Shown piece by piece: positions 1 to 20,977 of a DNA stretch of 64,000 bases. Position numbers and translations under genes: made by a program. The stretch is from Styela clava (taxonomy: Eukaryota > Chordata > Ascidiacea > Stolidobranchia > Styelidae), in NCBI RefSeq assembly GCF_964204865.1, contig NC_135262.1, forward strand, positions 7,378,001-7,442,000, given 5' to 3'. Positions within the stretch are counted from its first letter, which is position 1, and the number at the start of each line of letters is the position of its first letter. The notes under the pieces are model-generated. The model made no database searches and was not told where the DNA came from. It saw nothing but the letters and a program-made list of their open reading frames with translations.

Positions 1-755
1 CAGGTACACACACATACTATTTTCAGGTTGTGCGCCATCTTGGTACGCATACTTCGACATAATATCTGCTAATAACAAAATGAAACTCTAAATGAACACT
101 TCTTCAATTCATGTTTAGTTTTAATAAATGCCTACAGTAAGCTAATTTATACAAAATGGTAACTTTCTGTGGAAATCAAGGCAACTTATCAACCTGCGTC
201 CCTGATGGTATTCGTGGCTGTGTTCCCGTTATCATATTAAATACATAAAATGAGGAGGTGGGTGCATTACCAATATAATGATAAAGGTTAGGAATTCAAA
301 TTGGAAAATAAGCACTAAAAATCGTTTTATGTTATTGCTTTCATATCTTAGAATTTATAATGAATGGCGGAACTTAAATTATTTATGATATTTTAATTTT
401 CGAATTGCGGAAAAATAAATTATTCTAATAGTTTTCAATGTATCGATGAGCTGTGGGTAACAAGTTGGTGGCGATTTGAATTGTTTATTCGAGTCGAAAT
501 ACCCAACCCTAATGACTAGCCACCATATTCAAAAAATGAGAGGACACATCGCCACAAGGACAGTGCGGGATTGCGTTCAAATTCACTCCAACAGGATTTA
601 ATCGGCACACGGTAATCGAGATAAAGTTTCAATATTATGTTATCCACATTATCTAAAGGGGGAGGGAGGGGCGAGCCGCGGCCGTTAAGTCGAAGGCAAT
701 AGTTAACCCGTCATTCGGGTGCATGTAAAAGCTGCCAAATTTAGAATACTTTTCG

Positions 756-3126
756 CAGTGGCGGCGCGTCAATAGGGCCAACCGGGGCAATGCCCCGGTT
801 GTTTTTTCGGTATAATAAAAAATATTCGAAAAATACCTCAATATCGGTTGCACAGACTGTCTACACTAACCATATTCTCCCGACATGGTTCATTTTTCGC
901 TCGCAAAGCCTTCGCCGAACGTCGACGGGGCGACGCCGATTTTGCCCCGGTTGCTCATTGTATATCGTATTCTCTCTTTTATCTTCCACTCGCCGCGTTT
1001 GTCTCGTTTGTTTTCTGTTTCTTTTACCAAATCATCGGGGCTAGCCCCGAAATTATGACGACACAATGCCGACGTTTCTTACAACAACGTGTTGACATAT
1101 TCACGCATTCCTTCTCGTTCGTTGGTTGCTTGAAGAGTTGATAGTTTCCTCGCCTTCGTTTGTGTCGCTTGTTTCGCTATTTGAATCAGTTAGAGACCTT
1201 TAGTCCATTTGCTTTCGATTTTCCACATTCCTTTTGAGCTCCTCACTTCTTTCCGGCTTCGCATTTCTTAGCCTTAGACCTCATAATGAATAAGGTTGAT
1301 GCACTACTTCGCACTCCGTTTTCGCAGCTGCCGCTGGAACAAAAATTAGAGGTACAACGTCTTGGGCCTTATTAACCAAAAAATTGTTCACTGGAACAAT
1401 CCCATGACGGAGGAAAGCGTCGGCGTACATTCTGCGCAGAAACTTGGTATAAAAAACACGAATGGTTGTGTTACAGCGAGGACAAAAATGAACTTTTTTG
1501 TTTTTATTGCCTACTTTTTGCTACCGCTAAATTGATAGCTCAAACTTATGACGGCGCGGCAGTCATGAGTGGGTCGAAACATGGTGTTCAAGTTTATATA
1601 AAAGAAGATTTTCCTCATGCGCATTTTTTACATTGTTATGCACACCAATTTAACCTCGTTATTAAAAATATGTGTCTTGATACCCCTCTCGTCCGTATAT
1701 TTTTTGCAAATGTTTCGGGGTTTTCTTCATTTTTTTCCGTTTCGCCGAAGCGCTCTGACCTCCTTCGCCAGATATGTAGCCGCCGTCTCCCAGCTTGTGC
1801 ACCAACACGTTGGAACTTGCGATCACGCGTGGTGCAGGGCGTGTCCGAAATTAGGTCTGAGCTCATTGAGTGTTTCAATGGCATTCAGAGCTCTCCGGTT
1901 TGGGACGAACGCTCTGTGAGGTAGGCGGTAGGTCTAAAGCGTCTGCTAGAAGATGGTGAGTTTTCATTTTTTTTCACTTTTTTCTCCACAATATTCTATC
2001 ACGTGGATGTATTATACGGCGCATTGCAGTCAAGGCTAATGGATGGAGCGTCTGTGCAGTCGTGTATTTCAGACTTCTGCGATGCTGTACCTCGTATCCG
2101 GGAAACAATAAAATACGACGACACATGGAGTGCTTCTTTACGCCGCGGGCAAACAACGCAGCGTTTGATTTTGTCTGCAAAGGAATGCTGTGACATTCTG
2201 GTGAATCAAATAGGCGATCGTCTGCGCACTGAACACCTTGCCGCGTTCTCTTTGATGAACCCCAAAAAAATTTTCAAAATTTGCACGTCAATTTCCCATC
2301 CATTTGTTGGCTACTGTCTCCAAATTTTACCCCATGATAAACGTGGGTAAATTGGAAAATGAATTGCGATGTATATACACCAATCAAATTTTTTTGAACA
2401 TCACATCAACTTGCGCGCTCTATGGGTTCCTCATAGATAACACTCTAGTAACTACCTTTGCGGCGTCTGCAAAATTTCTGGACATCATTTTGACGACGCC
2501 TATTTCTTCCGCCGACGCAGAGCGAACATTCAGCACGCTGAAGCGTATTAAAACGTATCTCAGAAACACAATGAAGCAAGATAGATTAAATTCCTTGGCT
2601 GTTTTATCCATTCACAGAGACGTTATTTCTGGGATGCATGACTTTAATCAGCGCGTTATTGAGCATTTTGCTTCCAAGAAACCGCGGCGTGTTGCATATA
2701 TGTTCAAGCAGTAGAAGTCTAGCAGCATATATATCTATGAGTGAGCGACGCATGTCCTTATCTTTGCATTACCTTTCCTTTCCTCATAGTAACGTTTTAA
2801 ACCTTATTTTAGGTTTTGTCTGTCTTTCCCGAAGTTTCTGTTAATATGTCATTGTATTTATCTGGGAAAAGGCCTTTCCTTTTGAAAGAGGTTTCAAAAT
2901 AAACTATGTCTATATTTATTAATCCCTTGACTTGGACCGGTTTTGAGGACACTTTCTTATCGTTAAAAATGGTCGCTTTTGCCGATTGGTTGTTACCGAT
3001 GGAAAGGTTTTTATACTCATAAAATGATGGGAGAACTTATAGCGCTCATCCTGTCCCCGTAGATGGGGGTGACTTGGTCCCGCAGTAGCTTGCCCCGGTT
3101 GTCAAAATGACCACGCGCCGCCACTG
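756..3126 (+). mobile_element. hAT-family DNA transposon, copy 1 (inactive)
   Basis: The element is 2371 bp. It begins CAGTGGCGGCGCGT and ends with the reverse complement of that 14-mer, giving clean terminal inverted repeats. It is flanked by a perfect 8-bp target-site duplication, acttttcg, at 748-755 and 3127-3134. The 8-bp duplication and CAGTGGCG-type ends are diagnostic of hAT elements. A second, subterminal inverted motif (ccggggcaa near the left end, ttgccccgg near the right end) lies inside the TIRs. It contains a broken transposase gene. The same insertion with the same flanks is in the second duplication copy, so it inserted before the segment duplicated. Confidence 0.93.
1286..2714 (+). 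pseudogene. hAT transposase pseudogene (ZMYM1-like), copy 1
   Basis: An ATG at 1286 opens a frame that hits an in-frame TAA at 1373, then continues in the same frame with a WY...WL...FCFYC segment resembling the N-terminal TTF-type zinc finger of ZMYM1-like hAT transposases. The frame then jumps straight to the catalytic-region motif TYDGAAVMSG, so much of the middle seems to be missing. A G-to-T change makes a second stop (TAG at 1922-1924) that copy 2 lacks. A frameshift near 2340 separates the C-terminal hATC dimerisation domain (SSADAERTFSTLKRIKTYLR, then LAVLSIHRD), which ends at 2714. The breaks and missing middle make it non-functional. Confidence 0.88.
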
Positions 3127-3516
3127 ACTTTTCGCAATATTGAAACGCCACATAAAACTATTTCTGATAAACCATGGGAATATTTCATCTTATTGCATTT
3201 TATGTACGTGATGATACCTCGATTGACATTTTGTATAAAATATTAACCTCCCGCATTATAAATCACGAAGCAATATCGAACGGTTAATTAAAATTTCTGA
3301 TATCTGAGATAACTTTATCTTGTCGGTGGCATTGCGTTGGAAATATAAAAAATTCAATCGTAATACTGTACCCACATTTACCCAATACTAACAAAACACA
3401 TGTAATATGCGACAACATTTATTTCCAATCACCAAAACTAAGTTTCTAGTATTCTAGTTTAGACTATGATTTTCTAAAATTTCGATGTGTCGTCGTTATT
3501 AGCCGTCGCTGGCAAA
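2715..3516. other. 3' end of hAT element and intergenic DNA
   Basis: Positions 2715-3126 are the non-coding 3' part of the hAT element, including the right terminal inverted repeat. Positions 3135-3516 hold the 3' flank of the minus-strand secreted-protein gene, with a polyadenylation signal at 3418-3423. I see no other gene. The same sequence recurs at 14821-15623 with one added T near 15310. Confidence 0.6.
3418..3423 (-). terminator. Polyadenylation signal of secreted-protein gene, copy 1
   Basis: AATAAA on the minus strand, about 95 nt downstream of the stop codon at 3519-3517, is a plausible distance for the full-length mRNA. Confidence 0.5.
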
Positions 3517-6500
3517 TTACTTGCTCCAAATGTAACATCCACTTTTGTTCTGCTTGAGAACGTATCCATAGTAATGCCTGAAAATATGTGTAAGAATTAA
3601 TTACTAGTTGTTATTTTAATTACTTATGCCTCGACAGTCCGACCAGGTATGTTGAAGTATAGATCACACTGGCCATCGCTTGACAGTAGCTTGCTGGTTT
3701 GTTTGCTTCGCTATGATATTTTAAATTGAACTAAAAAGTATCTCACCTGTAATATTTCAGACTGAACTTATAGCTGCATGTGGTTGGATAAACAATCCTC
3801 CACTGGAACGACGAGCAATTCATAACAGGAAGAGTAAACTTGACAGCATAATTGCATTTGTATCCACAGGCGTAATGTTGTTCAAGTTTTGGAATCATAT
3901 CATTCCAGTATTGGTCGAACTCATCGAGAATTGCGAGATATTGACTGTTGACCTTGCTTTTGTATGCACCGAAGAGATCAGATACAGCTCCTTCAAACTC
4001 TTCACCAAAGTAGAAAGCCAACATCTTTTTGTATTGATTATTCTTCATTTTAGAAACCTGGATGTAAGACAATGTTTTTCGATAAATTGAGTAAATTCAG
4101 GAGAACTTAAAGGTTGCAGCATAACCATATAGGAAAGTCGGGATTTTTGTACTGATATTTTGTTTTGCCTTTTTCCTTGAAATAATCCGATTCATGTTTT
4201 TGATACAATAATTTGTTTAACTATTTTTGAAACTGTTGAAATTCGTATAAATGAGTGACTACAAGATTGAGTTAAAATTTCAGAACTCCGTCACATTGAT
4301 TAGTTATCTTAATTTTTAGTCTCAATTATATAATCACCTTGGCCAGACCATTCTTCAAAGCTTCTCTCAATTTGTCTTTCTTCTCATTCAAATTCTGAGT
4401 ATGTTTCTCAATTTTCTTCGTTCTTGTGTTGAGGCAAGCTTGATAACGAGCAGTTATTTTTTCAGCCAACTTTTTCAAATTGTTTTCGTATTTTTCTATC
4501 CTTTTGACGTAAACCTTTCCCGAAGTATTCAATCGATCGGCCAACATTTTTTCGTAACATTTGAGAGCTTTAGTTTTCTGACTTGCCAGTTTCATTGTGT
4601 ATGATTCGATTTTACATAATGCCATCTTGCAGAGGCGTCCTTGCCTAAAAGTAGTAAATAGTATTATTAGGCTTTTACCATTCGGTCGAAATACCCCAAC
4701 GGAAAGCGAAAAAAAAACAGAAATATTCAGGTGATAAGTCAAATTTGTAGTACATTGCCCGAGTTTTGAAACTTTATACCTGACGTAGTATGTTGCTTCC
4801 AAAGCCTTGATCAACCACTTATGTCTCTTTGTAACAATCGTTTGATATTCTTCATAATATTTCTTATGAAGTCCCGTCCATTTCAATTCCCATGCCTTGT
4901 ATGCTTCCTTCGCAACGCTGACTGCGGTTTTTACTTTCTTGGAAAGATCGAACTCGAATTCGGCGGAAGATTTGTTCACAGTTTCTGTGACGAAATAAGA
5001 TTTTGTTAGAATGAGTATGCTTGATAACTTAAGACCAAGGCTGAGTCGGTGTCTGTGTCTGTGTGTCATAGATTATGCTTTGTATCTTCAGAGCACATAG
5101 AATCATAGACGATAGATGGACTAACTCAAGACCAAGGCTGAGGAGTCGGTGTCTGTGTCTGTGTGAGGAGTCTGTGTCGGTATTTGGTATGTGTTTGTTG
5201 GAGTCGAAGCTGGAATCGAATTTTCAAACTTTCTGGATTCAAGATTTGGAGTCAGAGTCGAAATTTGAATTCTCCGAAGCCCGAATTTCAGACGTTTCGT
5301 AAGAACGAAAGAAATTAAAATTTTGTACAGTAATTTAAAAAAGTTATGTTCATTATGGCTGAGCGTTCCTGGCAATTTATTAAAGAATGATTGCATACGC
5401 CAAAGCTTTTAGCCTCAAAATCTGATTCCCCGAGTATTCGGAGCCGGAGTCAACTTTTTCAACTCAGATTCGGAGTCGATTGTTAATGTTCTCCGACTCT
5501 ACAGCTCTGGTTTGAATTGCATAGCTAACACGAAGAAAAGTATTGCATTTGACTATAGAATTTTAGTGTGCTTAAGATATCTAAATCTAAAATTAAATTT
5601 TCAATAAATACCGATATCGCAAGTTTTCAATTTCTTGAATTCAGGCTTCTTCCAGGCATAATATCTATAATTAGCAAACTTGAAGCAACTAATTTTCTTC
5701 GTGTATCGGAAAGTCCACCATGTTCCAAGTTTTTTGCTGAAATGAAATATTGTTTTTAATAAGTCTTCGACTTTGAATAAAACTCTTTTTACTTTTCTCA
5801 CAAGTAATTTGCCAAAGCATACTTACAAGGTATTGCTTGAAAGTGGGAAATCGGAAATTTTTCGCAAAGAACCACTAAGCTCTTAGACTAGCTGTCAGGG
5901 AAATTATACTCCTAGTATACTTAATATTGCAATACTAATATTAAATACTAATGAAGCTTGAGTTTGTGTTTATTTTGCTAAAATTCTGCTAGTTGATCAG
6001 CAGACAAAAATTGTGAGTCAACTTTAATAAATTTTCCTATCAAACTAACCAGAAAAGTGTTTCAAATTGGCATTAAATATTCTTTAAAACATTGACAAGT
6101 TTTACCATGAATTATAATACTTCTTCTTGAAAAAGTTCAAGCATCCAGTGTATGTTGTGCATTGATAAGAGCATGCATATCTTTGAACTATCACATCTTT
6201 GAAACCGTTAATTTTGTCCGCGTAGGAATTAAAAGTGACATCAAGTTTGTTTGATAATTTGGTTTTATATTCATTCACAACAGCGTCGACAATTTCTTTT
6301 TCCCAGGTTTTTGATCCTAAAAAATCAAAAATATTGTTAAAAATAATGTAAAATGTTAGCGAAACGTAGCGTTAATAATGTTAACTCACCATGCATCTTA
6401 TATAAAAGACAGCGATAAACTTTAACCTTTTTCTCGTTGAGTTTACTCATAACTTTCTTGAAATGAGCAAAATACTCTTTGATCCGTCCGGTAAGTGCCT

Positions 6501-7851
6501 TCTTGAATTGAGCAATTTTCTCAGATCGAGTTTGGAAGCATTTTAGTGCTCTGGTTTAATATATGAAGGAAAAGTTATTTCACGTGATTTTACCTTTGTT
6601 GTTTTTAAATGAATTTTTATTGTTGTTTAAATTAGCAGAACATACAGAAGTGGAAATTTTCTCAATATATTACAGAAAACATTACGTTGTATCAGTAAAG
6701 TTACTTAAAAAAAGCGTTAAATAATCGAGCTTACGCATTGACGATCCTTCCATGGAAAGCAATCAACTTGTTGTGTCTCTTCTGAATTGCATATTTGTAT
6801 TTAATAGCGGTGATAGAAGCCATTTTGTCAATTTTTGCTGTGAATGTGGATACAGCTTTATCCTTTTTCTCCGAAACAGCTGCTCTGCGCTCCTCAGGGA
6901 CGTATCTATATATATAAATACCGAAAAATAAATAGTTTCCTGAATAGAATTAGACGTTAAGAAATTTTCGATGCCAACAAGACTTGGCTTTTAGAATAAA
7001 AAAAAAATTTAATTCCATTTCTTAGTTTCGATTTTAATTTTAGTATTATTGCACTGAACCGATGTATGAAAGAAAATTAACATAAAAAATACTTCATAAA
7101 TTCTATTGTATATTCATTGACTCTATCGGCAAATTTAGTCTTGCAACTCTCCATTCTCAAGTTGAAATCAACAAGCCAAGTATCGTAATGTTCGTTCATC
7201 TCCTTCAATATTGCATCTGCCTTTGACTTCAGCTTCTTCTCAAGATTGGTCTTGAATTCGATTTTGGTCATTTCTGTGTTTTTGAGAAAGTAAAATAGAA
7301 ATGAAGTTACATTGAAAATCGATGGAGGTAATGGAAGGCAACAAATCTGAGAGAGAGAAAAAAAAGAAGGAAGGGAAGAGAGAAACAATGAAAAGAATAT
7401 GAGTGAGATTTTAAAAAGAAGAGAGTGGCGAACAGAGAGAACTTTTTAATAAAAACGAGAAAAGAGAAATCTATCGTTCTGAAATGCAAAGGTATTAATG
7501 TCTTGAAGAAATGAATAATTATTACCTTGAAAATCATCTGTTCCACATTTAGTTCCAGGATAAGAACTCATCACGGAAGAATAATATTTGGTAGTGAACC
7601 AGGAGGTGGAAAAATGAACACGAAACTTGAGACATGCCGAAGTAGGGAAGACGTAGAATCTCCTGATGGAATATTTAGTGTAACCACATGGATGTTGAAC
7701 ATAGGAGGCTGCGTTGGCAATCTGTATAAAGAAAATAGGTTGCGTGATATTATAGACTGTAGAGCAAAGATTTTACCAAATTCGAATTCAAATAGATATA
7801 GTAAAATAGACTTACCGCCAGGCAAGCCAGAAGTAAGATCAGGATCCTCAT
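3517..7851 (-). CDS. Predicted secreted modular Cys/helix protein, copy 1 (11 exons)
   Basis: The coding exons, read 5' to 3' on the minus strand, are 7851-7816, 7721-7526, 7273-7093, 6905-6735, 6550-6390, 6316-6106, 5736-5612, 4984-4780, 4644-4338, 4057-3747 and 3577-3517. All have GT/AG borders and phases that agree, giving 1965 nt and 654 residues. Residues 1-16 (MRILILLLACLAIANA) are a clear signal peptide with an A-N-A cleavage site. The mature chain alternates three Cys/Tyr-rich modules (about 17-77, 294-361 and 592-654; note YACSYQC and YACGYKC) with two Lys/Glu-rich helical, probably coiled-coil regions (78-293 and 362-591). The two helix-plus-Cys units resemble each other in sequence and exon phase, so the gene grew by internal duplication. 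I recognise no known family; a role as an extracellular structural or secreted humoral protein is inference. Retaining the intron after exon 6 or exon 10 would give immediate stops, so shorter isoforms are possible. Confidence 0.72.
5031..5512. repeat. GAGTCG-rich dispersed repeat in intron 7, copy 1
   Basis: Contains many GGAGTC / GAGTCG / GACTCC words typical of a repeat family scattered through the window. Within it, the segment starting AAGACCAAGGCTGAG and followed by TCGGTGTCTGTGTCTGTGTG occurs twice, at about 5031-5066 and 5128-5165, a small tandem duplication. It lies in the intron between exons 7 and 8 of the secreted-protein gene. Confidence 0.6.
5969..5974 (-). terminator. Possible internal polyadenylation signal (AATAAA), copy 1
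   Basis: AATAAA on the minus strand lies inside intron 6, about 130 nt past the stop codon (TAA, 6104-6102) that appears if the exon 6 donor is not used. It could support a short 319-residue secreted isoform. A lone hexamer in AT-rich DNA is weak evidence. The copy-2 equivalent is at 18076-18081. Confidence 0.3.
7345..7440. repeat. Purine-rich low-complexity tract in intron 2, copy 1
   Basis: The plus strand is almost pure A/G (gagagagag, aaaaaaaag, aaggaaggg). On the transcribed (minus) strand this is a long polypyrimidine stretch upstream of the exon 3 acceptor. It is repeated at 19452-19547. Confidence 0.6.
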
Positions 7852-7911
7852 TTTGTGTCTTGTTTCGAAGTTCTTCGAGTTGAGACTGATTCGATTCATG
7901 TTTCCGTGGCC

Positions 7912-7919
7912 TATTTATA
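7912..7919 (-). promoter_or_regulatory. TATA box of secreted-protein gene, copy 1
   Basis: The minus strand reads TATAAATA about 60 bp upstream of the ATG at 7851, which would place transcription start near 7885 and give a 5' leader of about 35 nt. The block from about 7800 to 7992 is almost unchanged between the two duplication copies, although the DNA on both sides has diverged. That supports it as a working promoter, unless gene conversion explains it. Confidence 0.65.
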
Positions 7920-7992
7920 CCCCGAAACAGAATATCTTGAACCGTACTGGCGCCGATAAAACACTCCTGGTTGCTATTTTGTCGTTCAAAAC

Positions 7993-9649
7993 ATGCATAA
8001 TCATCCTACTCGAATAAACTTATGGATTCCGTAATTTCGATATGTGTATATATTATGAGGCTTTCCCAGTGCAGTTTTGTTGAACGATCAAGTTTTGATA
8101 ACTCGAGACACGGGAAAGATAATCCATTTGCAGTTCAAACTTGCAATATTAAATCAGCAGATAAGATTCAGAAGTAGGCTTAATACATTTTGCATGGTGA
8201 TTTCATCTTCTTGTTTTTACAACCCGTTCTCGATTCCTTACTTTTTACATTATCAGTTTTCAATGTGTTCAATGAAACTTATCCTGTTACAATTTTTGTT
8301 TTAACTATGCTGTTTTCGAATTCAAACAAAAATCCGAGGAAGACATAAAAAACATTTTATAGCACGAATCCGTGTATTTTGCACCTATGGATTAATGCTT
8401 CGATATAGCGTTGAGAGATTTAAATCAGTATCATTATGTCATACTAATGCTGGATAGTAATTACAAGACATCGAAGTGTAGGATTAGATCCCAGACCTGG
8501 CGCCGTTTATCTAAATTATGTATGTGGTATCTAAGCAACTTCAGAACATCACATTTTGAAGTGATGCGGTGTGTTTTGAATCCAACTGTTTCGTTGCATT
8601 GTAATTGTTCATTCTTGGCATCTCGTTATTTGAATATACACAGAATATCATGCCGAAAAACCATGAAGCTAATGATATAGATATATTCAAATCGTTCAAT
8701 TCGTTCGTTTATTACTCCAGACCGCTGTGGTCCATATAAAAACAACACAACAAATAAACATAAGCAAAACAAAAATAACGCAATAAATACATAAAATACC
8801 TGATATGACAATCAGATTCACAGTAAGTCTCAAAAAAGAGTTATAATATAGCAATTCAAGAGACCAAAAGTGAGGTATAGAATCTAAGGTAGCCCGTGAC
8901 AAACAGTATCTGGGAATCAAATAATGATTGTGTAGATTTATATATATAGATATATATAGATTTCAAGACTCTTCATTTCGTTATATATTATAAATCTCTA
9001 TCCAGATATGAACTAGATATGGTGAATATGTCGAATATGTCGTTTGTGAATTTATTATACTTAATATCATCATTTAAAAGGTTTCACGAATGTTTTATGT
9101 GTACATAGCCATGGCTACATAAATGTTCTGTACGTACATGTGACGTATATATATTTAAAAATCCATATATCCCACAGCCATGAGCCGTTTAAAACTCCGT
9201 TTACTTTTTGCATCCTTTCAATGCATAGGAACATTAGGAACTTTTTCTCATCAATAATATATTCTGTAGAGTACATTGATATTTATCTATCTTTATCTAA
9301 TTATTTATCTAATTTATCTATGGAAATTCCCTTGACCCCGGACTCAGAAAAATACTGTCTATACTTCACCATGGCAAAAATAAATAAAGCAATTACCAGC
9401 TGGGGTACACATTTATAATCATCATTCAGATTCAAAATATTTAACTGCCCACAGTTTAACAGTCTCGTTCTATTTAATTAGTCTACCAAAAAAGGTTATT
9501 CAAAAAATCTTGTAATCTTAAGAGAGAAATTTTTGATTACTTTTACTTGAAATTTAACGCGAAATTATTTCACTTTATTTCATTCAATTCTATCATTGTT
9601 GCGATTGTGAAATTTTTCCCCCTGATTAACGATATAATTCAGACTACGT
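7993..9649. other. Non-coding DNA upstream of copy 1 gene
   Basis: From 7993 to about 9170 this aligns with diverged sequence at 20100-20975. An insertion of about 250 bp at 8680-8938, next to TATATATAGATATA repeats, is specific to this copy. From 9170 to 9649 I see no gene or clear repeat; the short open frames look random. Confidence 0.55.
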
Positions 9650-9671
9650 CTTATTTTCGGGGAAACACGGT
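9650..9671. mobile_element. Solo terminus of a TTATTTTCGGGGAAACACGGT-type MITE
   Basis: This segment matches the right terminus of the MITE at 31896-32273 (cttattttcggg...cacggt). No matching left terminus is visible nearby, so it is a fragment. Confidence 0.5.
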
Positions 9672-10721
9672 TGTCAAAGAAACGCCAAATGAATACGCAT
9701 TTTGTCACACAGACCAACTTACATTTTTTATTATATGAACAAAACATATTTTTCCGATTATCGTGTTACTATTATGGTACTGATGTGAAAAATTCTTTGT
9801 AAATTTTTTTTAGACGACTAATAATCACTGACAATCTGAGTATCGATTTGTATTGCCAGGATAAACTAGCAAAGAGTGCAAAATCTAGAAACATCTGATA
9901 CTTCTTTGTATTTGATACTTCTTACTTAATCAAACTGTTTCCGACAAGAATAGGAAACTCAAATTTACCAAATCAGAGGAGGTTCAGATGTCAATAAAAC
10001 AGGAGAGCAATACTCAAATATATGGAGACAAATACCAATCATGAGTACCAGTACGGTAGATTTGGAAGCACCAAGTTAGTAGAGATCGCCGGACAAACAA
10101 TACGGAGTCGGTCGAGTAATACGAAATAAAAAGTGTTCCCCTTTAGTTAAAATAAAAAGCAAAATATTTCGTAAAATATCGTGCACCATGAAACTCATAA
10201 CAAATTTCAATAAAGAATATGAAAGTGATACCCAGGCTTCAGCCATATTTGAAAGACTTAATTCGAAAACGATCGGCATATTAGTTCCCGACAAAAAATT
10301 TGCTCAACAACAAATATTATCCTCAAAACAAAAGTCATCAGCAAAAACACCAATATGTACATTTTTTTCCAATGAGCTATCATAAGTCTAGTTCGCTTTT
10401 GGTGTTTCCGTTATAAGCGTGTAATTCATTCCCGATGCAGATCTTGTTAACTCCTACTACGTGGTCAGCATCTGCATTTAAAGTGGATTTGGAAAGAAAT
10501 TGAAAATGAAGAGGAATTTGTGAAGGAGCGTGTAAGAAATTTGTGTGAAATATGTAAAAACTGACAAACTTGGTTTTAACAAAATATATGAAAAGGTAGA
10601 AAAGACAAGAAAGTTTATTGAACAGAGTAGTCTAACATAACGTGGACAAAAATAACTTGACCTATATTTTTTAATTTTGAGAACATTGATGTATGGGAAC
10701 ATTAAGTAGAGATATATTATA
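9672..10721. other. Intergenic DNA, no gene seen
   Basis: AT-rich sequence with only short open frames (72 codons or fewer) lacking recognisable motifs or splice structure. No repeat boundary identified. Confidence 0.5.
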
Positions 10722-11398
10722 ATATCGTCACGCTAATACCCGAATTGCGTAAGTCATTTTTTGGCGGTTTTGAGTTTTTCATAAAATAGGTATTTATGTA
10801 ATGCTGCGCACCTGTCTGTTAAGTCAGATTTTGTTTTAAGAATTCCGAAACCCATAAAAATAGAGATTTTGTATGATATGCAAATTTGTTCAATTGTTTC
10901 GTCATAATGAATTATCATTGATAACGCAGGACTATGACGTCACAGAGGCAAAATAACCTCGGCAAATGATTTTCGAGTTTTTGCATCTCAGATTCTAGCT
11001 TAGCGCTTATAAATTTCAATTTATACTACAGTATAGGAAGGCGTGCACTTGTGATATTCACTGTCTGAGTCCAATTCACCTTGGTTGGCTTTTATATAAG
11101 GGTACATTGCTGTTTTATTCTATATAGTTTGGTTTTCAGTACTGGTACATATAGTCAAGTTGCAAAATTGCGTGTGTCTCCAAGTCATTGACACATTTCT
11201 GCCTAAGTCACAGTGCACCATTATGACGTCACATGACTGCGTCATACAAATTAACTTAAATCCGGCTACGATCAAAAAATTGAACTTTGGCAAATTATTG
11301 ACTCTGAATGGCATGACAATATCATTAGGAAGTTTTTCACGTTTTTCTCAAAACTGCTAAAAATGACTTACGCGATTCGGTTATTAGCGTGACGATAT
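10722..11398. mobile_element. TIR element with about 55-bp terminal inverted repeats
   Basis: The left end begins atatcgtcacgctaata and runs on through ccgaat, gcgtaagtcattttt and gttttgag. The reverse complement of 11340-11398 gives the same words with a few mismatches, so the inverted repeats are about 55 bp. The element is 677 bp with no open frame of useful length, hence non-autonomous. Two TGACGTCA palindromes lie inside, at about 10935 and 11224. The target-site duplication is short or unclear (possibly ATA or TA), so I do not assign a superfamily. Confidence 0.8.
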
Positions 11399-11557
11399 AC
11401 TTGTGTAATTAGCTAGACAAATTTGAAAATTTAGCTATTTTTGGTATTTTTGATAGCTCAGGAAATGCTTTATAAATACCTGCTATCGGGGGACCTATAA
11501 CATGCCTAACTCGCGATCCACTGAACTTAAATAATGCGGTTTATTATTAAAAAATGT

Positions 11558-11778
11558 GGTGCTCCCGAAGTATGCGAACCAAGATGGCGGACATCGAAAC
11601 GTAACACGGGTAACAGGTTAGGGTTAGGCGATAATTTTTTTCCAATTTTCCTTATTTTAGTCCTATTATCAGAGAGCCTCCCGTAGTATTTATACCTAAA
11701 ATTATGGCCTAACCTTAACCTAGTACACATATTACATTCCGATGTCCGCCATCTTGGTTCGCATACTTCGGGAGCCCC
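11558..11778. mobile_element. Short hAT-like MITE with about 40-bp inverted repeats
   Basis: The left end GGTGCTCCCGAAGTATGCG continues with aaccaagatggcggacatcg, and the right end is its reverse complement with one mismatch in the first bases. It is 221 bp, flanked on both sides by aaaaatgt (11550-11557 and 11779-11786), an 8-bp target-site duplication that points to hAT transposase mobilisation. It has no coding capacity. Confidence 0.85.
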
Positions 11779-12058
11779 AAAAATGTATTGGGCAAATCCA
11801 TACTTGAATAAATCCTTCAATGTAAAATCAAATTGTGTTTTGAGGATTTGTAATTTTACGGAAACGCCGTGAGTCTAATGCATAGAAACCCTTTTCTCAT
11901 TTCATTAGGTTAAAAGTAAAGAGAAGAAAACATAGTATACATGCAATATACAATTATCAGTCATTCCCGAGACCATGGTAAAGAGGAGCAAGCATGAAGC
12001 ACATGATTATTTATCATTATCATTGGTTACAAAATATTGTCTGAATACATATTAATAG

Positions 12059-12166
12059 GTGCTCCAGAAGTAAGCGCACCAAGATGTCGCACTACCTGAA
12101 TCCCAACAGGTACACACACATACTATTTTCAGGTTGTGCGCAATCTTGGTACGCATACTTCGACAT
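12059..12166. mobile_element. Related GGTGCTCC MITE spanning the duplication junction
   Basis: The left end ggtgctccagaagtaagcgc, then accaagatg, is a diverged relative of the 11558-11778 terminus. The right half (caatcttggtacgcatacttcg) is the matching inverted arm, but the last GGAGCACC bases are missing. The start of copy 2 (12107) lies inside this element, and the window itself begins inside the equivalent right half in copy 1. Confidence 0.6.
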
Positions 12167-12861
12167 AATATCTGCTAATAACAAAATGAAACTCTAAATG
12201 AACACTTCTTCAATTCATGTTTAGTTTTAATAAATGCCTACAGTAAGCTAATTTATACAAAATGGTAACTTTCTGTGGAAATCAAGGCAACTTATCAACC
12301 TGCGTCCCTGATGGTATTCGTGGCTGTGTTCCCGTTATCATATTAAATACATAAAATGAGGAGGTGGGTGCATTACCAATATAATGATAAAGGTTAGGAA
12401 TTCAAATTGGAAAATAAGCACTAAAAATCGTTTTATGTTATTGCTTTCATATCTTAGAATTTATAATGAATGGCGGAACTTAAATTATTTATGATATTTT
12501 AATTTTCGAATTGCGGAAAAATAAATTATTCTAATAGTTTTCAATGTATCGATGAGCTGTGGGTAACAAGTTGGTGGCGATTTGAATTGTTTATTCGAGT
12601 CGAAATACCCAACCCTAATGACTAGCCACCATATTCAAAAAATGAGAGGACACATCGCCACAAGGACAGTGCGGGATTGCGTTCAAATTCACTCCAACAG
12701 GATTTAATCGGCACACGGTAATCGAGATAAAGTTTCAATATTATGTTATCCACATTATCTAAAGGGGGAGGGAGGGGCGAGCCGCGGCCGTTAAGTCGAA
12801 GGCAATAGTTAACCCGTCATTCGGGTGCATGTAAAAGCTGCCAAATTTAGAATACTTTTCG

Positions 12862-15232
12862 CAGTGGCGGCGCGTCAATAGGGCCAACCGGGGCAATGCC
12901 CCGGTTGTTTTTTCGGTATAATAAAAAATATTCGAAAAATACCTCAATATCGGTTGCACAGACTGTCTACACTAACCATATTCTCCCGACATGGTTCATT
13001 TTTCGCTCGCAAAGCCTTCGCCGAACGTCGACGGGGCGACGCCGATTTTGCCCCGGTTGCTCATTGTATATCGTATTCTCTCTTTTATCTTCCACTCGCC
13101 GCGTTTGTCTCGTTTGTTTTCTGTTTCTTTTACCAAATCATCGGGGCTAGCCCCGAAATTATGACGACACAATGCCGACGTTTCTTACAACAACGTGTTG
13201 ACATATTCACGCATTCCTTCTCGTTCGTTGGTTGCTTGAAGAGTTGATAGTTTCCTCGCCTTCGTTTGTGTCGCTTGTTTCGCTATTTGAATCAGTTAGA
13301 GACCTTTAGTCCATTTGCTTTCGATTTTCCACATTCCTTTTGAGCTCCTCACTTCTTTCCGGCTTCGCATTTCTTAGCCTTAGACCTCATAATGAATAAG
13401 GTTGATGCACTACTTCGCACTCCGTTTTCGCAGCTGCCGCTGGAACAAAAATTAGAGGTACAACGTCTTGGGCCTTATTAACCAAAAAATTGTTCACTGG
13501 AACAATCCCATGACGGAGGAAAGCGTCGGCGTACATTCTGCGCAGAAACTTGGTATAAAAAACACGAATGGTTGTGTTACAGCGAGGACAAAAATGAACT
13601 TTTTTGTTTTTATTGCCTACTTTTTGCTACCGCTAAATTGATAGCTCAAACTTATGACGGCGCGGCAGTCATGAGTGGGTCGAAACATGGTGTTCAAGTT
13701 TATATAAAAGAAGATTTTCCTCATGCGCATTTTTTACATTGTTATGCACACCAATTTAACCTCGTTATTAAAAATATGTGTCTTGATACCCCTCTCGTCC
13801 GTATATTTTTTGCAAATGTTTCGGGGTTTTCTTCATTTTTTTCCGTTTCGCCGAAGCGCTCTGACCTCCTTCGCCAGATATGTAGCCGCCGTCTCCCAGC
13901 TTGTGCACCAACACGTTGGAACTTGCGATCACGCGTGGTGCAGGGCGTGTCCGAAATTAGGTCTGAGCTCATTGAGTGTTTCAATGGCATTCAGAGCTCT
14001 CCGGTTTGGGACGAACGCTCTGTGAGGGAGGCGGTAGGTCTAAAGCGTCTGCTAGAAGATGGTGAGTTTTCATTTTTTTTCACTTTTTTCTCCACAATAT
14101 TCTATCACGTGGATGTATTATACGGCGCATTGCAGTCAAGGCTAATGGATGGAGCGTCTGTGCAGTCGTGTATTTCAGACTTCTGCGATGCTGTACCTCG
14201 TATCCGGGAAACAATAAAATACGACGACACATGGAGTGCTTCTTTACGCCGCGGGCAAACAACGCAGCGTTTGATTTTGTCTGCAAAGGAATGCTGTGAC
14301 ATTCTGGTGAATCAAATAGGCGATCGTCTGCGCACTGAACACCTTGCCGCGTTCTCTTTGATGAACCCCAAAAAAATTTTCAAAATTTGCACGTCAATTT
14401 CCCATCCATTTGTTGGCTACTGTCTCCAAATTTTACCCCATGATAAACGTGGGTAAATTGGAAAATGAATTGCGATGTATATACACCAATCAAATTTTTT
14501 TGAACATCACATCAACTTGCGCGCTCTATGGGTTCCTCATAGATAACACTCTAGTAACTACCTTTGCGGCGTCTGCAAAATTTCTGGACATCATTTTGAC
14601 GACGCCTATTTCTTCCGCCGACGCAGAGCGAACATTCAGCACGCTGAAGCGTATTAAAACGTATCTCAGAAACACAATGAAGCAAGATAGATTAAATTCC
14701 TTGGCTGTTTTATCCATTCACAGAGACGTTATTTCTGGGATGCATGACTTTAATCAGCGCGTTATTGAGCATTTTGCTTCCAAGAAACCGCGGCGTGTTG
14801 CATATATGTTCAAGCAGTAGAAGTCTAGCAGCAAATATATCTATGAGTGAGCGACGCATGTCCTTATCTTTGCATTACCTTTCCTTTCCTCATAGTAACG
14901 TTTTAAACCTTATTTTAGGTTTTGTCTGTCTTTCCCGAAGTTTCTGTTAATATGTCATTGTATTTATCTGGGAAAAGGCCTTTCCTTTTGAAAGAGGTTT
15001 CAAAATAAACTATGTCTATATTTATTAATCCCTTGACTTGGACCGGTTTTGAGGACACTTTCTTATCGTTAAAAATGGTCGCTTTTGCCGATTGGTTGTT
15101 ACCGATGGAAAGGTTTTTATACTCATAAAATGATGGGAGAACTTATAGCGCTCATCCTGTCCCCGTAGATGGGGGTGACTTGGTCCCGCAGTAGCTTGCC
15201 CCGGTTGTCAAAATGACCACGCGCCGCCACTG
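12862..15232 (+). mobile_element. hAT-family DNA transposon, copy 2 (inactive)
   Basis: Same 2371-bp element as at 756-3126, with the same terminal inverted repeats and the same target-site duplication, acttttcg, at 12854-12861 and 15233-15240. Identical flanks show it was copied as part of the segment rather than by a second transposition. Confidence 0.93.
13392..14820 (+). pseudogene. hAT transposase pseudogene (ZMYM1-like), copy 2
   Basis: Shares the early in-frame TAA (13479-13481), the missing middle and the frameshift before the hATC domain with copy 1. It keeps GAG where copy 1 has TAG, so the central frame (13572-14456) runs 294 codons. The inactivating lesions predate the duplication; the extra stop in copy 1 came later. 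The C-terminal hATC part is in a different frame (14410-14820). Confidence 0.88.
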
Positions 15233-15524
15233 ACTTTTCGCAATATTGAAACGCCACATAAAACTATTTCTGATAAACCATGGGAATATTTCATCTTATT
15301 GCATTTTATTGTACGTGATGATACCTCGATTGACATTTTGTATAAAATATTAACCTCCCGCATTATAAATCACGAAGCAATATCGAACGGTTAATTAAAA
15401 TTTCTGATATCTGAGATAACTTTATCTTGTCGGTGGCATTGCGTTGGAAATATAAAAAATTCAATCGTAATACTGTACCCACATTTACCCAATACTAACA
15501 AAACACATGTAATATGCGACAACA

Positions 15525-15530
15525 TTTATT
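15525..15530 (-). terminator. Polyadenylation signal of secreted-protein gene, copy 2
   Basis: AATAAA on the minus strand, about 95 nt past the stop codon at 15626-15624, matching the site in copy 1. Confidence 0.5.
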
Positions 15531-15623
15531 TCCAATCACCCAAACTAAGTTTCTAGTATTCTAGTTTAGACTATGATTTTCTAAAATTTCGATGTGTCGT
15601 CGTTATTAGCCGTCGCTGGCAAA

Positions 15624-18600
15624 TTACTTGCTCCAAATGTAACATCCACTTTTGTTCTGCTTGAGAACGTATCCATAGTAATGCCTGAAAATATGTGTAA
15701 GAATTAATTACTAGTTGTTATTTTAATTACTTATGCCTCGACAGTCCGACCAGGTATGTTGAAGTATAGATCACACTGGCCATCGCTTGACAGTAGCTTG
15801 CTGGTTTGTTTGCTTCGCTATGATATTTTAAATTGAACTAAAAAGTATCTCACCTGTAATATTTCAGACTGAACTTATAGCTGCATGTGGTTGGATAAAC
15901 AATCCTCCACTGGAACGACGAGCAATTCATAACAGGAAGAGTAAACTTGACAGCATAATTGCATTTGTATCCACAGGCGTAATGTTGTTCAAGTTTTGGA
16001 ATCATATCATTCCAGTATTGGTCGAACTCATCGAGAATTGCGAGATATTGACTGTTGACCTTGCTTTTGTATGCACCGAAGAGATCAGATACAGCTCCTT
16101 CAAACTCTTCACCAAAGTAGAAAGCCAACATCTTTTTGTATTGATTATTCTTCATTTTAGAAACCTGGATGTAAGACAATGTTTTTCGATAAATTGAGTA
16201 AATTCAGGAGAACTTAAAGGTTGCAGCATAACCATATAGGAAAGTCGGGATTTTTGTACTGATATTTTGTTTTGCCTTTTTCCTTAAAATAATCCGATTC
16301 ATGTTTTTGATACAATAATTTGTTTAACTATTTTTGAAACTGTTGAAATTCGTATAAATGAGTGACTACAAGATTGAGTTAAAATTTCAGAACTCCGTCA
16401 CATTGATTAGTTATCTTAATTTTTAGTCTCAATTATATAATCACCTTGGCCAGACCATTCTTCAAAGCTTCTCTCAATTTGTCTTTCTTCTCATTCAAAT
16501 TCTGAGTATGTTTCTCAATTTTCTTCGTTCTTGTGTTGAGGCAAGCTTGATAACGAGCAGTTATTTTTTCAGCCAACTTTTTCAAATTGTTTTCGTATTT
16601 TTCTATCCTTTTGACGTAAACCTTTCCCGAAGTATTCAATCGATCGGCCAACATTTTTTCGTAACATTTGAGAGCTTTAGTTTTCTGACTTGCCAGTTTC
16701 ATTGTGTATGATTCGATTTTACATAATGCCATCTTGCAGAGGCGTCCTTGCCTAAAAGTAGTAAATAGTATTATTAGGCTTTTACCATTCGGTCGAAATA
16801 CCCCAACGGAAAGCGAAAAAAAAACAGAAATATTCAGGTGATAAGTCAAATTTGTAGTACATTGCCCGAGTTTTGAAACTTTATACCTGACGTAGTATGT
16901 TGCTTCCAAAGCCTTGATCAACCACTTATGTCTCTTTGTAACAATCGTTTGATATTCTTCATAATATTTCTTATGAAGTCCCGTCCATTTCAATTCCCAT
17001 GCCTTGTATGCTTCCTTCGCAACGCTGACTGCGGTTTTTACTTTCTTGGAAAGATCGAACTCGAATTCGGCGGAAGATTTGTTCACAGTTTCTGTGACGA
17101 AATAAGATTTTGTTAGAATGAGTATGCTTGATAACTTAAGACCAAGGCTGAGTCGGTGTCTGTGTCTGTGTGTCATAGATTATGCTTTGTATCTTCAGAG
17201 CACATAGAATCATAGACGATAGATGGACTAACTCAAGACCAAGGCTGAGGAGTCGGTGTCTGTGTCTGTGTGAGGAGTCTGTGTCGGTATTTGGTATGTG
17301 TTTGTTGGAGTCGAAGCTGGAATCGAATTTTCAAACTTTCTGGATTCAAGATTTGGAGTCAGAGTCGAAATTTGAATTCTCCGAAGCCCGAATTTCAGAC
17401 GTTTCGTAAGAACGAAAGAAATTAAAATTTTGTACAGTAATTTAAAAAAGTTATGTTCATTATGGCTGAGCGTTCCTGGCAATTTATTAAAGAATGATTG
17501 CATACGCCAAAGCTTTTAGCCTCAAAATCTGATTCCCCGAGTATTCGGAGCCGGAGTCAACTTTTTCAACTCAGATTCGGAGTCGATTGTTAATGTTCTC
17601 CGACTCTACAGCTCTGGTTTGAATTGCATAGCTAACACGAAGAAAAGTATTGCATTTGACTATAGAATTTTAGTGTGCTTAAGATATCTAAATCTAAAAT
17701 TAAATTTTCAATAAATACCGATATCGCAAGTTTTCAATTTCTTGAATTCAGGCTTCTTCCAGGCATAATATCTATAATTAGCAAACTTGAAGCAACTAAT
17801 TTTCTTCGTGTATCGGAAAGTCCACCATGTTCCAAGTTTTTTGCTGAAATGAAATATTGTTTTTAATAAGTCTTCGACTTTGAATAAAACTCTTTTTACT
17901 TTTCTCACAAGTAATTTGCCAAAGCATACTTACAAGGTATTGCTTGAAAGTGGGAAATCGGAAATTTTTCGCAAAGAACCACTAAGCTCTTAGACTAGCT
18001 GTCAGGGAAATTATACTCCTAGTATACTTAATATTGCAATACTAATATTAAATACTAATGAAGCTTGAGTTTGTGTTTATTTTGCTAAAATTCTGCTAGT
18101 TGATCAGCAGACAAAAATTGTGAGTCAACTTTAATAAATTTTCCTATCAAACTAACCAGAAAAGTGTTTCAAATTGGCATTAAATATTCTTTAAAACATT
18201 GACAAGTTTTACCATGAATTATAATACTTCTTCTTGAAAAAGTTCAAGCATCCAGTGTATGTTGTGCATTGATAAGAGCATGCATATCTTTGAACTATCA
18301 CATCTTTGAAACCGTTAATTTTGTCCGCGTAGGAATTAAAAGTGACATCAAGTTTGTTTGATAATTTGGTTTTATATTCATTCACAACAGCGTCGACAAT
18401 TTCTTTTTCCCAGGTTTTTGATCCTAAAAAATCAAAAATATTGTTAAAAATAATGTAAAATGTTAGCGAAACGTAGCGTTAATAATGTTAACTCACCATG
18501 CATCTTATATAAAAGACAGCGATAAACTTTAACCTTTTTCTCGTTGAGTTTACTCATAACTTTCTTGAAATGAGCAAAATACTCTTTGATCCGTCCGGTA

Positions 18601-19958
18601 AGTGCCTTCTTGAATTGAGCAATTTTCTCAGATCGAGTTTGGAAGCATTTTAGTGCTCTGGTTTAATATATGAAGGAAAAGTTATTTCACGTGATTTTAC
18701 CTTTGTTGTTTTTAAATGAATTTTTATTGTTGTTTAAATTAGCAGAACATACAGAAGTGGAAATTTTCTCAATATATTACAGAAAACATTACGTTGTATC
18801 AGTAAAGTTACTTAAAAAAAGCGTTAAATAATCGAGCTTACGCATTGACGATCCTTCCATGGAAAGCAATCAACTTGTTGTGTCTCTTCTGAATTGCATA
18901 TTTGTATTTAATAGCGGTGATAGAAGCCATTTTGTCAATTTTTGCTGTGAATGTGGATACAGCTTTATCCTTTTTCTCCGAAACAGCTGCTCTGCGCTCC
19001 TCAGGGACGTATCTATATATATAAATACCGAAAAATAAATAGTTTCCTGAATAGAATTAGACGTTAAGAAATTTTCGATGCCAACAAGACTTGGCTTTTA
19101 GAATAAAAAAAAAATTTAATTCCATTTCTTAGTTTCGATTTTAATTTTAGTATTATTGCACTGAACCGATGTATGAAAGAAAATTAACATAAAAAATACT
19201 TCATAAATTCTATTGTATATTCATTGACTCTATCGGCAAATTTAGTCTTGCAACTCTCCATTCTCAAGTTGAAATCAACAAGCCAAGTATCGTAATGTTC
19301 GTTCATCTCCTTCAATATTGCATCTGCCTTTGACTTCAGCTTCTTCTCAAGATTGGTCTTGAATTCGATTTTGGTCATTTCTGTGTTTTTGAGAAAGTAA
19401 AATAGAAATGAAGTTACATTGAAAATCGATGGAGGTAATGGAAGGCAACAAATCTGAGAGAGAGAAAAAAAAGAAGGAAGGGAAGAGAGAAACAATGAAA
19501 AGAATATGAGTGAGATTTTAAAAAGAAGAGAGTGGCGAACAGAGAGAACTTTTTAATAAAAACGAGAAAAGAGAAATCTATCGTTCTGAAATGCAAAGGT
19601 ATTAATGTCTTGAAGAAATGAATAATTATTACCTTGAAAATCATCTGTTCCACATTTAGTTCCAGGATAAGAACTCATCACGGAAGAATAATATTTGGTA
19701 GTGAACCAGGAGGTGGAAAAATGAACACGAAACTTGAGACATGCCGAAGTAGGGAAGACGTAGAATCTCCTGATGGAATATTTAGTGTAACCACATGGAT
19801 GTTGAACATAGGAGGCTGCGTTGGCAATCTGTATAAAGAAAATAAGTTGCATGATATTATAGACTGTAGAGCAAATATTTCACCAAATTCGCATCCAACT
19901 AGATATAGTAAAATAGACTTACCGCCAGGCAAGCCAGAAGTAAGATCAGGATCCTCAT
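15624..19958 (-). CDS. Predicted secreted modular Cys/helix protein, copy 2 (11 exons)
   Basis: Exons are 19958-19923, 19828-19633, 19380-19200, 19012-18842, 18657-18497, 18423-18213, 17843-17719, 17091-16887, 16751-16445, 16164-15854 and 15684-15624. As far as I could compare, it encodes the same 654-residue protein as the 3517-7851 gene, with the same signal peptide, three Cys/Tyr modules and two helical regions. Intron 1 has a cluster of differences from copy 1 (19842-19905), and the leader has one C/T change. Both copies have intact splice sites and no stops, so both look functional. The promoter is conserved, but sequence further upstream (beyond 20100) has diverged, so the two genes could be regulated differently. 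Confidence 0.72.
17138..17619. repeat. GAGTCG-rich dispersed repeat in intron 7, copy 2
   Basis: Same repeat as 5031-5512, including the internal tandem duplication of the AAGACCAAGGCTGAG segment. Confidence 0.6.
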
Positions 19959-20018
19959 TTTGTGCCTTGTTTCGAAGTTCTTCGAGTTGAGACTGATTCG
20001 ATTCATGTTTCCGTGGCC

Positions 20019-20026
20019 TATTTATA
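20019..20026 (-). promoter_or_regulatory. TATA box of secreted-protein gene, copy 2
   Basis: TATAAATA on the minus strand, same spacing to the ATG (19958) as in copy 1. It lies in the conserved 19907-20099 block. Confidence 0.65.
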
Positions 20027-20977
20027 CCCCGAAACAGAATATCTTGAACCGTACTGGCGCCGATAAAACACTCCTGGTTGCTATTTTGTCGTTCAAAACA
20101 TTCATAAGCATTCTACTCGAAGGAGCTTATGGATTTTGAAATTTTCACATATGTATATATCATGCGATTTTTCCAGTGCAATTTCGTTAAGATAATCCAT
20201 ATGCAGTTTGTACTTGCATTATAAAATCAGCGTATAAGAATCAGAAGTAGGCTTAATATCTTTTGGATAGTGATTGTCTGGAGATATTATCTACTTGTTA
20301 TTGCAACGCGTTTCCGATCTCTATCTTTTTATATCATGATTAGTTTTCAATGTGTTTGAATGAAACTTATCCAGTTACAATTTTTGTTTTAACAGTGCTG
20401 TTTTCGATTCCAAACAAAAAATCTGAGAAAGACATATAATCCTTTTTACAACTCGAATCCGTGTATTTTGCACTGACGGTTTAATGCTTCAATACAGCGT
20501 TGAGAGATTTGAATTAGTATCATTATGTCATACTAATGCTGTGTTGTAATTACAGCACATCGAAATGTAGGATTAGATCCCAGACCTGACGCCGTTTAGT
20601 CAAATTATGTATGTGGTATCTAAGCAACTTCAGAACATCACATTTTAATGTGATGCGAGGTGTTTTCAACCCAACTATTTTGTTGCATTGTAATTGTTCA
20701 TTCTTGTCATCTCGTTATTTGAATATACACAGAATAGCGTGATGAAAAACCATTGAGATAGTGATACAGATATAGCTTTCAAGACTCTTCATTGCATTAT
20801 ATTTTATAAACTGCTATCCATATATGAACTAGATATAGTAATGTGCTTGGTGTTTTTAATATACATATTATTATCAAAAGGTTTCACAAATGTTCTATGT
20901 GCCTATAGCATTGACTACAAAAATGTTCTGTACTTACATGTGACATAAATTTAAAGAAACACATATTTACCCTGCAG

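What the first reader, a model, noticed from the sequence alone, without database searches (positions are those of the whole stretch)
3517..19958. Tandem pair of genes for an unrecognised secreted protein built from alternating Cys/Tyr and helical modules
The spliced model gives a 654-residue secreted protein with the pattern Cys module, helix region, Cys module, helix region, Cys module. Both helix-plus-Cys units have matching exon phases and similar motifs (YACSYQC and YACGYKC; KRHNKLI and KRHKWLI), so the gene arose by internal duplication and was then duplicated whole. I know no family with this layout. All 11 exons of both copies stay open, which argues for function.
Basis: partly seen in the sequence, partly recalled or inferred. 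Interest (0 to 1): 0.72.

Follow-up and report, generated by a model that had tools for sequence, protein, structure and literature searches.

The report
Tandem orphan secreted protein genes, tunicate-like
This stretch of an animal genome, probably a sea squirt's, carries two side-by-side copies, identical in coding sequence, of a gene for a large secreted protein that matches no catalogued family searched; it is a credible but fairly ordinary lineage-specific gene, and the two copies being intact proves nothing because they have not yet diverged.

Summary
The 11-exon gene model passes every sequence check made: two minus-strand copies (7851..3517 and 19958..15624), GT-AG introns, one continuous frame, 654 residues, a signal-peptide-like start, a TATA box upstream and AATAAA 93 nt after the stop. 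The protein is basic (pI 9.7; 16% Lys, 8% Tyr, 3% Cys) and alternates three Cys/Tyr modules with two helix-rich regions. No Pfam-A family reaches its cut-off and no PDB chain matches significantly, so 'unrecognised' holds within those libraries. The coding sequences are identical (0 of 1965 differences), so open exons in both copies are one observation, not two. Internal duplication is moderately supported (last helix plus YAC-x-Y-x-C; phase-2 introns just after KYY in modules 2 and 3), but some phases do not match and the helical parts do not pair convincingly. The pair looks old: upstream flanks differ by 14.5%, while the bodies differ at 6 positions in 7.7 kb, so the bodies were recently homogenised, freshly copied or mis-assembled. 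Septin matches point to a tunicate. My mechanism, a cross-linked extracellular structural protein, is inference. Structure predictions were uninformative.

The parts
3517..7851 (-). Gene copy 1, start codon to stop codon, 11 exons, 654 aa
15624..19958 (-). Gene copy 2, start codon to stop codon, 11 exons, identical coding sequence
7816..7851 (-). copy 1 exon 1 (signal peptide start; phase out 0)
7526..7721 (-). copy 1 exon 2 (end of signal peptide, Cys module 1; phase out 1)
7093..7273 (-). copy 1 exon 3 (helical; phase out 2)
6735..6905 (-). copy 1 exon 4 (helical, KRHNKLI; phase out 2)
6390..6550 (-). copy 1 exon 5 (helical; phase out 1)
6106..6316 (-). copy 1 exon 6 (helix then YACSYQC, first part of Cys module 2; phase out 2)
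5612..5736 (-). copy 1 exon 7 (rest of Cys module 2; phase out 1)
4780..4984 (-). copy 1 exon 8 (helical, KRHKWLI; phase out 2)
4338..4644 (-). copy 1 exon 9 (long helical exon; phase out 0)
3747..4057 (-). copy 1 exon 10 (helix then YACGYKC, first part of Cys module 3; phase out 2)
3517..3577 (-). copy 1 exon 11 (end of Cys module 3 and stop)
19923..19958 (-). copy 2 exon 1
19633..19828 (-). copy 2 exon 2
19200..19380 (-). copy 2 exon 3
18842..19012 (-). copy 2 exon 4
18497..18657 (-). copy 2 exon 5
18213..18423 (-). copy 2 exon 6
17719..17843 (-). copy 2 exon 7
16887..17091 (-). copy 2 exon 8
16445..16751 (-). copy 2 exon 9
15854..16164 (-). copy 2 exon 10
15624..15684 (-). copy 2 exon 11
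7793..7993 (-). Proximal promoter (TATAAATA at 7919), 5' UTR, exon 1 and start of intron 1 of copy 1: 1 mismatch in 201 against copy 2, between more diverged stretches
3418..3423 (-). AATAAA polyadenylation signal, 93 nt after the stop of copy 1
15525..15530 (-). AATAAA polyadenylation signal, 93 nt after the stop of copy 2
1..8685 (.). Repeat unit copy 1 (runs off the left end of the window); 6 differences in 1..7737, then divergence
12107..20774 (.). Repeat unit copy 2

Best explanation
Two adjacent copies of one real protein-coding gene of an animal, most likely a tunicate. The product is secreted and basic: three Cys/Tyr-rich modules joined by two Lys-rich helical regions of about 220 residues. 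The last helix plus the start of the Cys module arose by internal duplication. I infer that it is an extracellular structural protein: the helical regions act as spacers, the Cys/Tyr modules as knobs held by disulphides and able to be cross-linked through Tyr and Lys (tunic, egg coat or adhesive secretion). An older tandem pair, whose upstream flanks have drifted apart by 14.5%, has had its gene bodies made identical recently by gene conversion or unequal exchange. Shown: gene structure, layout, identity pattern. Inferred: secretion (from the N-terminus), host group, fold, cross-linking, tissue, function and the cause of the homogenisation.
For: Exons, splice sites, frame and identical CDS; coding composition; pI 9.7, K 16.0%, Y 8.3%, C 3.3%, and 20-22% Tyr+Phe in each Cys module; by a crude propensity count, 20 of 25 windows between the modules favour helix and 9 of 10 windows in them favour strand; unit A/B similarity and exon 6/exon 10 as the best of 45 exon pairs, 0 of 400 shuffles; phase-2 introns in the third codon after KYY in module 2 and the first in module 3; TATA box and AATAAA. 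Body 6 differences in 7737, upstream 89 mismatches in 613, promoter/exon-1 block 1 in 201. Septin exons score best against PDB 9bhw_B in 3 of 3 searches, two of them overlapping.
Against: No transcript, no homologue in another species and no confident structure: AlphaFold mean pLDDT 45.7 for exon 10 and 41.0 for module 1. Only modules 1 and 3 resemble each other more than usual, and weakly (133 of 5000 shuffles reach it); 2-3 and 1-2 do not (733 and 2030 of 5000). Helical sub-units do not pair in order, and without the YAC motif the helical parts score 79 against 67 reversed. Module 1 has no intron after its KYY. A review says DOPA-forming enzymes could not be localised to ascidian adhesive organs and that phenol tanning was considered unlikely there (PMC4275875, passages), which counts against the adhesive version. 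Tyr 8% is far below the best-known DOPA glues (recalled). Near-identity of the bodies could be an assembly error.
Confidence: 0.35

Rival explanations
1. The second copy, or the identity of the two gene bodies, is an assembly artefact: one locus or two alleles laid in tandem.
For: 6 differences in 7.7 kb including a whole hAT insertion with the same target-site duplication, and 0 of 1965 in the coding sequence.
Against: The upstream flanks are 14.5% diverged and then lose similarity, intron 1 differs at 7 of 55 positions, and the window has no N. Simple doubling of one locus does not give that.
Confidence: 0.25
2. A secreted lipid- or membrane-active protein: the basic amphipathic helices bind lipid or microbial membranes (exchangeable-apolipoprotein-like or defence protein) and the Cys modules are stabilising caps.
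For: Weak, below-cut-off match mostly in exon 9 to Pfam Apolipoprotein (E 0.016; 15.3 bits against a cut-off of 90); 8 of 35 windows of 18 residues have a helical moment above 0.4, with no control run.
Against: Equally weak matches to DUF725, Spectrin_3, TINF2_N and others look like a generic helical signal; the many aromatic residues in the Cys modules are not explained.
Confidence: 0.2
3. A member of a described secreted family that has diverged beyond sequence recognition.
For: DUF725 (E 0.0015, 18.9 bits against a cut-off of 22) for the second helical region alone; only sequence methods gave usable results.
Against: Below cut-off, 55 residues only; no Cys module reaches any cut-off (best 13.8 bits against 27) and their joint profile finds no PDB chain.
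Confidence: 0.2
4. A decaying or non-expressed duplicate whose open frames are a relic.
For: Identical copies give no independent evidence of constraint.
Against: All 10 introns per copy keep GT-AG and frame; promoter/exon-1 block 1 mismatch in 201 where the flank rate predicts about 29 (binomial 7e-13, block limits chosen after seeing the alignment), though conversion could also produce that.
Confidence: 0.05

Closest known systems
Exchangeable apolipoproteins (Pfam PF01442 Apolipoprotein A1/A4/E)
   Same: secreted, Lys/Glu-rich helices; sub-threshold score mostly in exon 9
   Different: far below the cut-off (15.3 against 90 bits); apolipoproteins have no Cys/Tyr modules (recalled)
DUF725 (Pfam PF05267)
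   Same: weak match over 55 residues of the second helical region
   Different: below cut-off; not listed for the Cys modules or the first helical region
Cross-linked structural proteins of invertebrates (DOPA/Tyr glues, tanned matrix proteins)
   Same: secreted, basic, rich in Lys, Tyr and Cys; an ascidian protein related to phenol oxidases is proposed to act in tunic formation (PMC9395347, passages)
   Different: 8% Tyr only, no tandem-repeat array in the gene's DNA, long helical regions; no evidence of modification

Membership tests
Apolipoprotein A1/A4/E (PF01442) | score above Pfam gathering cut-off | tested here: not met
   15.3 bits against 90; 13.8 for the region alone
DUF725 (PF05267) | score above Pfam gathering cut-off | tested here: not met
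   16.6 (whole protein) and 18.9 (helical region alone) against 22
Spectrin-like repeat (PF21019) | score above Pfam gathering cut-off | tested here: not met
   15.3 and 18.9 against 24.4
Any family with a solved structure | sequence match to a PDB chain | tested here: not met
   only hit at E up to 10 is KIF20A, E 0.67; profile of the three Cys modules: none at E up to 10
Secreted extracellular matrix or adhesive protein | cleaved signal peptide | tested here: inconclusive
   N-terminus MRILILLLACLAIANA-A reads as one by eye; no predictor was run
Secreted extracellular matrix or adhesive protein | localisation in matrix and covalent cross-links | not testable with these tools
   needs tissue and protein chemistry
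Internal duplication within the gene | units A and B more alike than shuffled or reversed controls | tested here: met
   111 against a maximum of 90 in 1000 full shuffles; 1 of 1000 block-15 shuffles reaches it; reversed B gives 67, but A against its own reverse gives 90
Internal duplication within the gene | same intron positions and phases in both units | tested here: inconclusive
   three junctions agree in phase, one disagrees, one has no partner

The most novel reading that the evidence does not exclude
A tunicate-restricted family of structural secreted proteins whose Cys/Tyr module (C-x-Y ... Y ... C-x-x-F ... F-x-x-K-Y-Y) is a fold not yet described, kept in identical tandem copies by gene conversion for high output.
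Probability: 0.2. Interest if true: 0.5.

Novelty: new variant of a known kind. Interest (0 to 1): 0.3.

Why it matters
If the protein is a lineage-specific structural secretion, it adds a candidate building block for tissues special to the animal (if a tunicate: tunic, egg coat or attachment glue), and the homogenised pair would be a neat case of gene conversion sparing the upstream flank and a stretch of intron 1. As it stands it is one more unclassified secreted animal protein.

Tried and rejected
Rejected: 'both copies open argues for function', because the copies are identical in coding sequence and 99.9% over 1..7737. Rejected: KRHNKLI/KRHKWLI as corresponding positions, because the best local alignment does not place them together. 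Not supported: in-order pairing of helical sub-units with exon 9 read as two fused exons (rank 5 of 24). No third copy in the window: beyond the two copies tblastn gave only chance-level matches, the best outside them at E 2.0. Led nowhere: relatives in IMG/VR with exon 10 and exon 2 (7 and 3 pattern stretches, no relative) and in GTDB genomes with exon 9 (103 stretches, none); these are viral and prokaryotic collections, so the absence was expected and says nothing about other animals. AlphaFold of exon 10 alone and of module 1 with a three-row alignment gave pLDDT 45.7 and 41.0; I ran no fold search with them. Pfam scan of five pieces reached no cut-off and a PDB search with a profile of the three modules found nothing. 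Six paper searches on themes (one search returned none) and one on Ciona septins found no paper that I could tie to this protein; they were word searches, not sequence searches, so I do not claim it is unpublished.

Papers: passages only of PMC4275875, PMC9395347 and PMC8704543; others only as search listings.

Full report
What is there. The region 3517-19958 holds two minus-strand copies of the same gene. Reading the reverse strand of copy 1 in three frames and splicing both copies by script gives 11 exons in each, copy 1 at 7851..3517 and copy 2 at 19958..15624. I picked exon limits by eye and the script asked for GT after each exon; the 10 introns of each copy all begin GT and end AG, phases run 0,1,2,2,1,2,1,2,0,2, and the product is 654 residues ending in a stop. 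Introns of copy 1 are 73-627 nt and 31% GC, while codon position 3 is 43% GC; at the stop rate of the introns, 654 open codons have a naive probability of 5e-18, which overstates the case because exon limits were chosen. A TATA box (TATAAATAG at 7919) stands 68 nt before the ATG at 7851, and AATAAA lies 93 nt after the stop in both copies. An in-frame ATG at 7899 lies only 20 nt after the TATA box, so the ATG at 7851 is the likelier start (by eye).

The protein. After a hydrophobic N-terminus that reads as a signal peptide (no predictor was run), the mature chain, taken to start at residue 18, is about 75.6 kDa with pI 9.7, 16.0% Lys, 8.3% Tyr and 3.3% Cys; NxS/T sites lie at residues 364, 468, 611 and 645. 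Cys module 1 lies in exon 2, module 2 in exons 6-7 and module 3 in exons 10-11. In windows of 18 residues a crude propensity count favours helix in 20 of 25 windows between the modules and strand in 9 of 10 windows in them. A three-row alignment shows shared C-x-Y, Y, C-x-x-F and F-x-x-K-Y-Y positions, but an aligner would bring out such matches anyway; in shuffle tests only module 1 against 3 stands out, at 133 of 5000, against 733 for 2-3 and 2030 for 1-2.

Internal duplication. Unit A (exons 3-7) against unit B (exons 8-11) scores 111; no full shuffle of 1000 and no 40-residue-block shuffle of 1000 reaches this, 1 of 1000 does with 15-residue blocks; with whole-length alignment the numbers are 0, 1 and 2 of 1000. 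A against reversed B gives 67, but A against its own reverse gives 90, which shows how far helical composition alone can go; without the YAC motif the helical parts score 79 against 67 reversed. Of 45 exon pairs, exon 6 with exon 10 is the best (z 5.25, 0 of 400) and 5 with 9 the second, 3 with 8 is eighth, non-corresponding pairs such as 4 with 6 follow closely, and 4-8 and 7-11 are not in the 14 listed. When the helical parts are cut into four sub-units each, pairing them in order ranks 5th of 24. Exon phases agree at entry to each unit (1), at the end of its first exon (2) and in the third or first codon after KYY (2); they disagree at exon 5/6 and 9/10 (1 and 0); the exon 4/5 intron has no partner; module 1 has no intron after KYY. 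I conclude that the last helix and the start of the Cys module were duplicated, with the rest plausible but unproved.

The tandem pair. The coding sequences show 0 differences of 1965, and the tract 1..7737 differs from its copy at 6 positions, one an indel, so the second copy carries no independent information. Upstream the picture changes: 7 of 55 positions differ in intron 1 (7738-7792), 1 of 201 in the block with the proximal promoter, 5' UTR, exon 1 and start of intron 1 (7793-7993), and 89 of 613 aligned positions, 14.5%, plus 50 gap columns in 7994-8640. Beyond that similarity falls away, with one 75% match at 8954-9170. This is what an older tandem duplication would leave if the gene bodies and downstream DNA were later made identical by conversion or unequal exchange. 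The conserved 201-base block is either under selection or a second conversion patch; at the flank rate about 29 differences were expected (binomial 7e-13; block limits were set after seeing the alignment). Assembly error is not excluded. The identical tract runs off the left end of the window, so its full length is unknown.

Host. Three PDB searches with pieces of a septin gene at about 33.5-49 kb all rank 9bhw_B first, 'Neuronal-specific septin-3', from an entry that also holds 'CiSeptin-7' (the first two queries overlap). That Ci stands for the sea squirt Ciona is recalled. Other septin-3 chains (4z51, 3sop; human, recalled) score a little lower (149.2 against 151.7 bits, 101.0 against 111.3, 80.9 against 82.7), so a tunicate is likely, not shown. 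GC content of 31-40% is compatible with tunicates, reported at 43% or less (PMC8704543, passage). The window's own genome could not be searched; the service did not complete.

Is it known? No Pfam-A family reaches its cut-off with the whole protein or any of five pieces. The strongest weak matches (DUF725, Apolipoprotein, TINF2_N, Spectrin_3) all overlap exon 9, TINF2_N running into exon 10; HTH_62 falls on exon 5; modules 1 and 3 give 13.0 and 13.8 bits against cut-offs of 27, module 2 nothing. These look like generic signal. In the PDB the whole protein finds only KIF20A at E 0.67 and the module profile nothing. AlphaFold models of exon 10 and of module 1 are of no use (pLDDT 45.7 and 41.0), though the first puts helices in residues 6-63 and none after, as the composition suggests. 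No collection of animal genomes or proteomes was available, so orthologues may well exist and be named elsewhere.

Mechanism. Composition and layout suit an extracellular structural protein: helical spacers between disulphide-held, Tyr-rich knobs that could be oxidatively cross-linked to Lys. In ascidians a protein related to phenol oxidases is proposed to act in tunic formation (PMC9395347, passages). Against an adhesive role, a review says that DOPA-forming enzymes could not be localised to ascidian adhesive organs and that phenol tanning was considered unlikely, sulphydryl-containing proteins being seen instead (PMC4275875, passages); Cys-rich modules would still fit that last point. This is inference; I give the combined statement 0.35.

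Noticed in passing
756-3126 and 12862-15232: A hAT transposon with CAGTGGCGG termini and an 8-bp target-site duplication ACTTTTCG, inserted at the same site in both copies about 390 bp after the gene's stop; the hAT dimerisation domain was tested in copy 2 and the same ORF is listed in copy 1; the longer ORF before it is interrupted in copy 1 and not in copy 2.
   Followed up: partly
33-55, 11567-11769, 12067-12161: MITE-like elements with arms GAAGTATGCGNACCAAGATGGCG: 5 matches in the window (two inverted pairs and one single arm cut by the window's left end), none in 100 shuffles, the pattern having been drawn from the window itself; one pair overlaps the left edge of repeat unit 2, a possible recombination site.
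   Followed up: no
33555-49026: A septin gene of the SEPT3/9 group on the minus strand, in several exons.
   Followed up: partly
23520-24173: Plus-strand stretches of an ABC transporter nucleotide-binding domain in two open frames.
   Followed up: no
62758-63396: Minus-strand open frame of 213 residues ending in SGLDPLWTLRK with no Pfam match at E up to 10.
   Followed up: no
7793-7993: Promoter and exon-1 block with 1 mismatch in 201 between copies, flanked on both sides by stretches at 13-15% divergence.
   Followed up: yes
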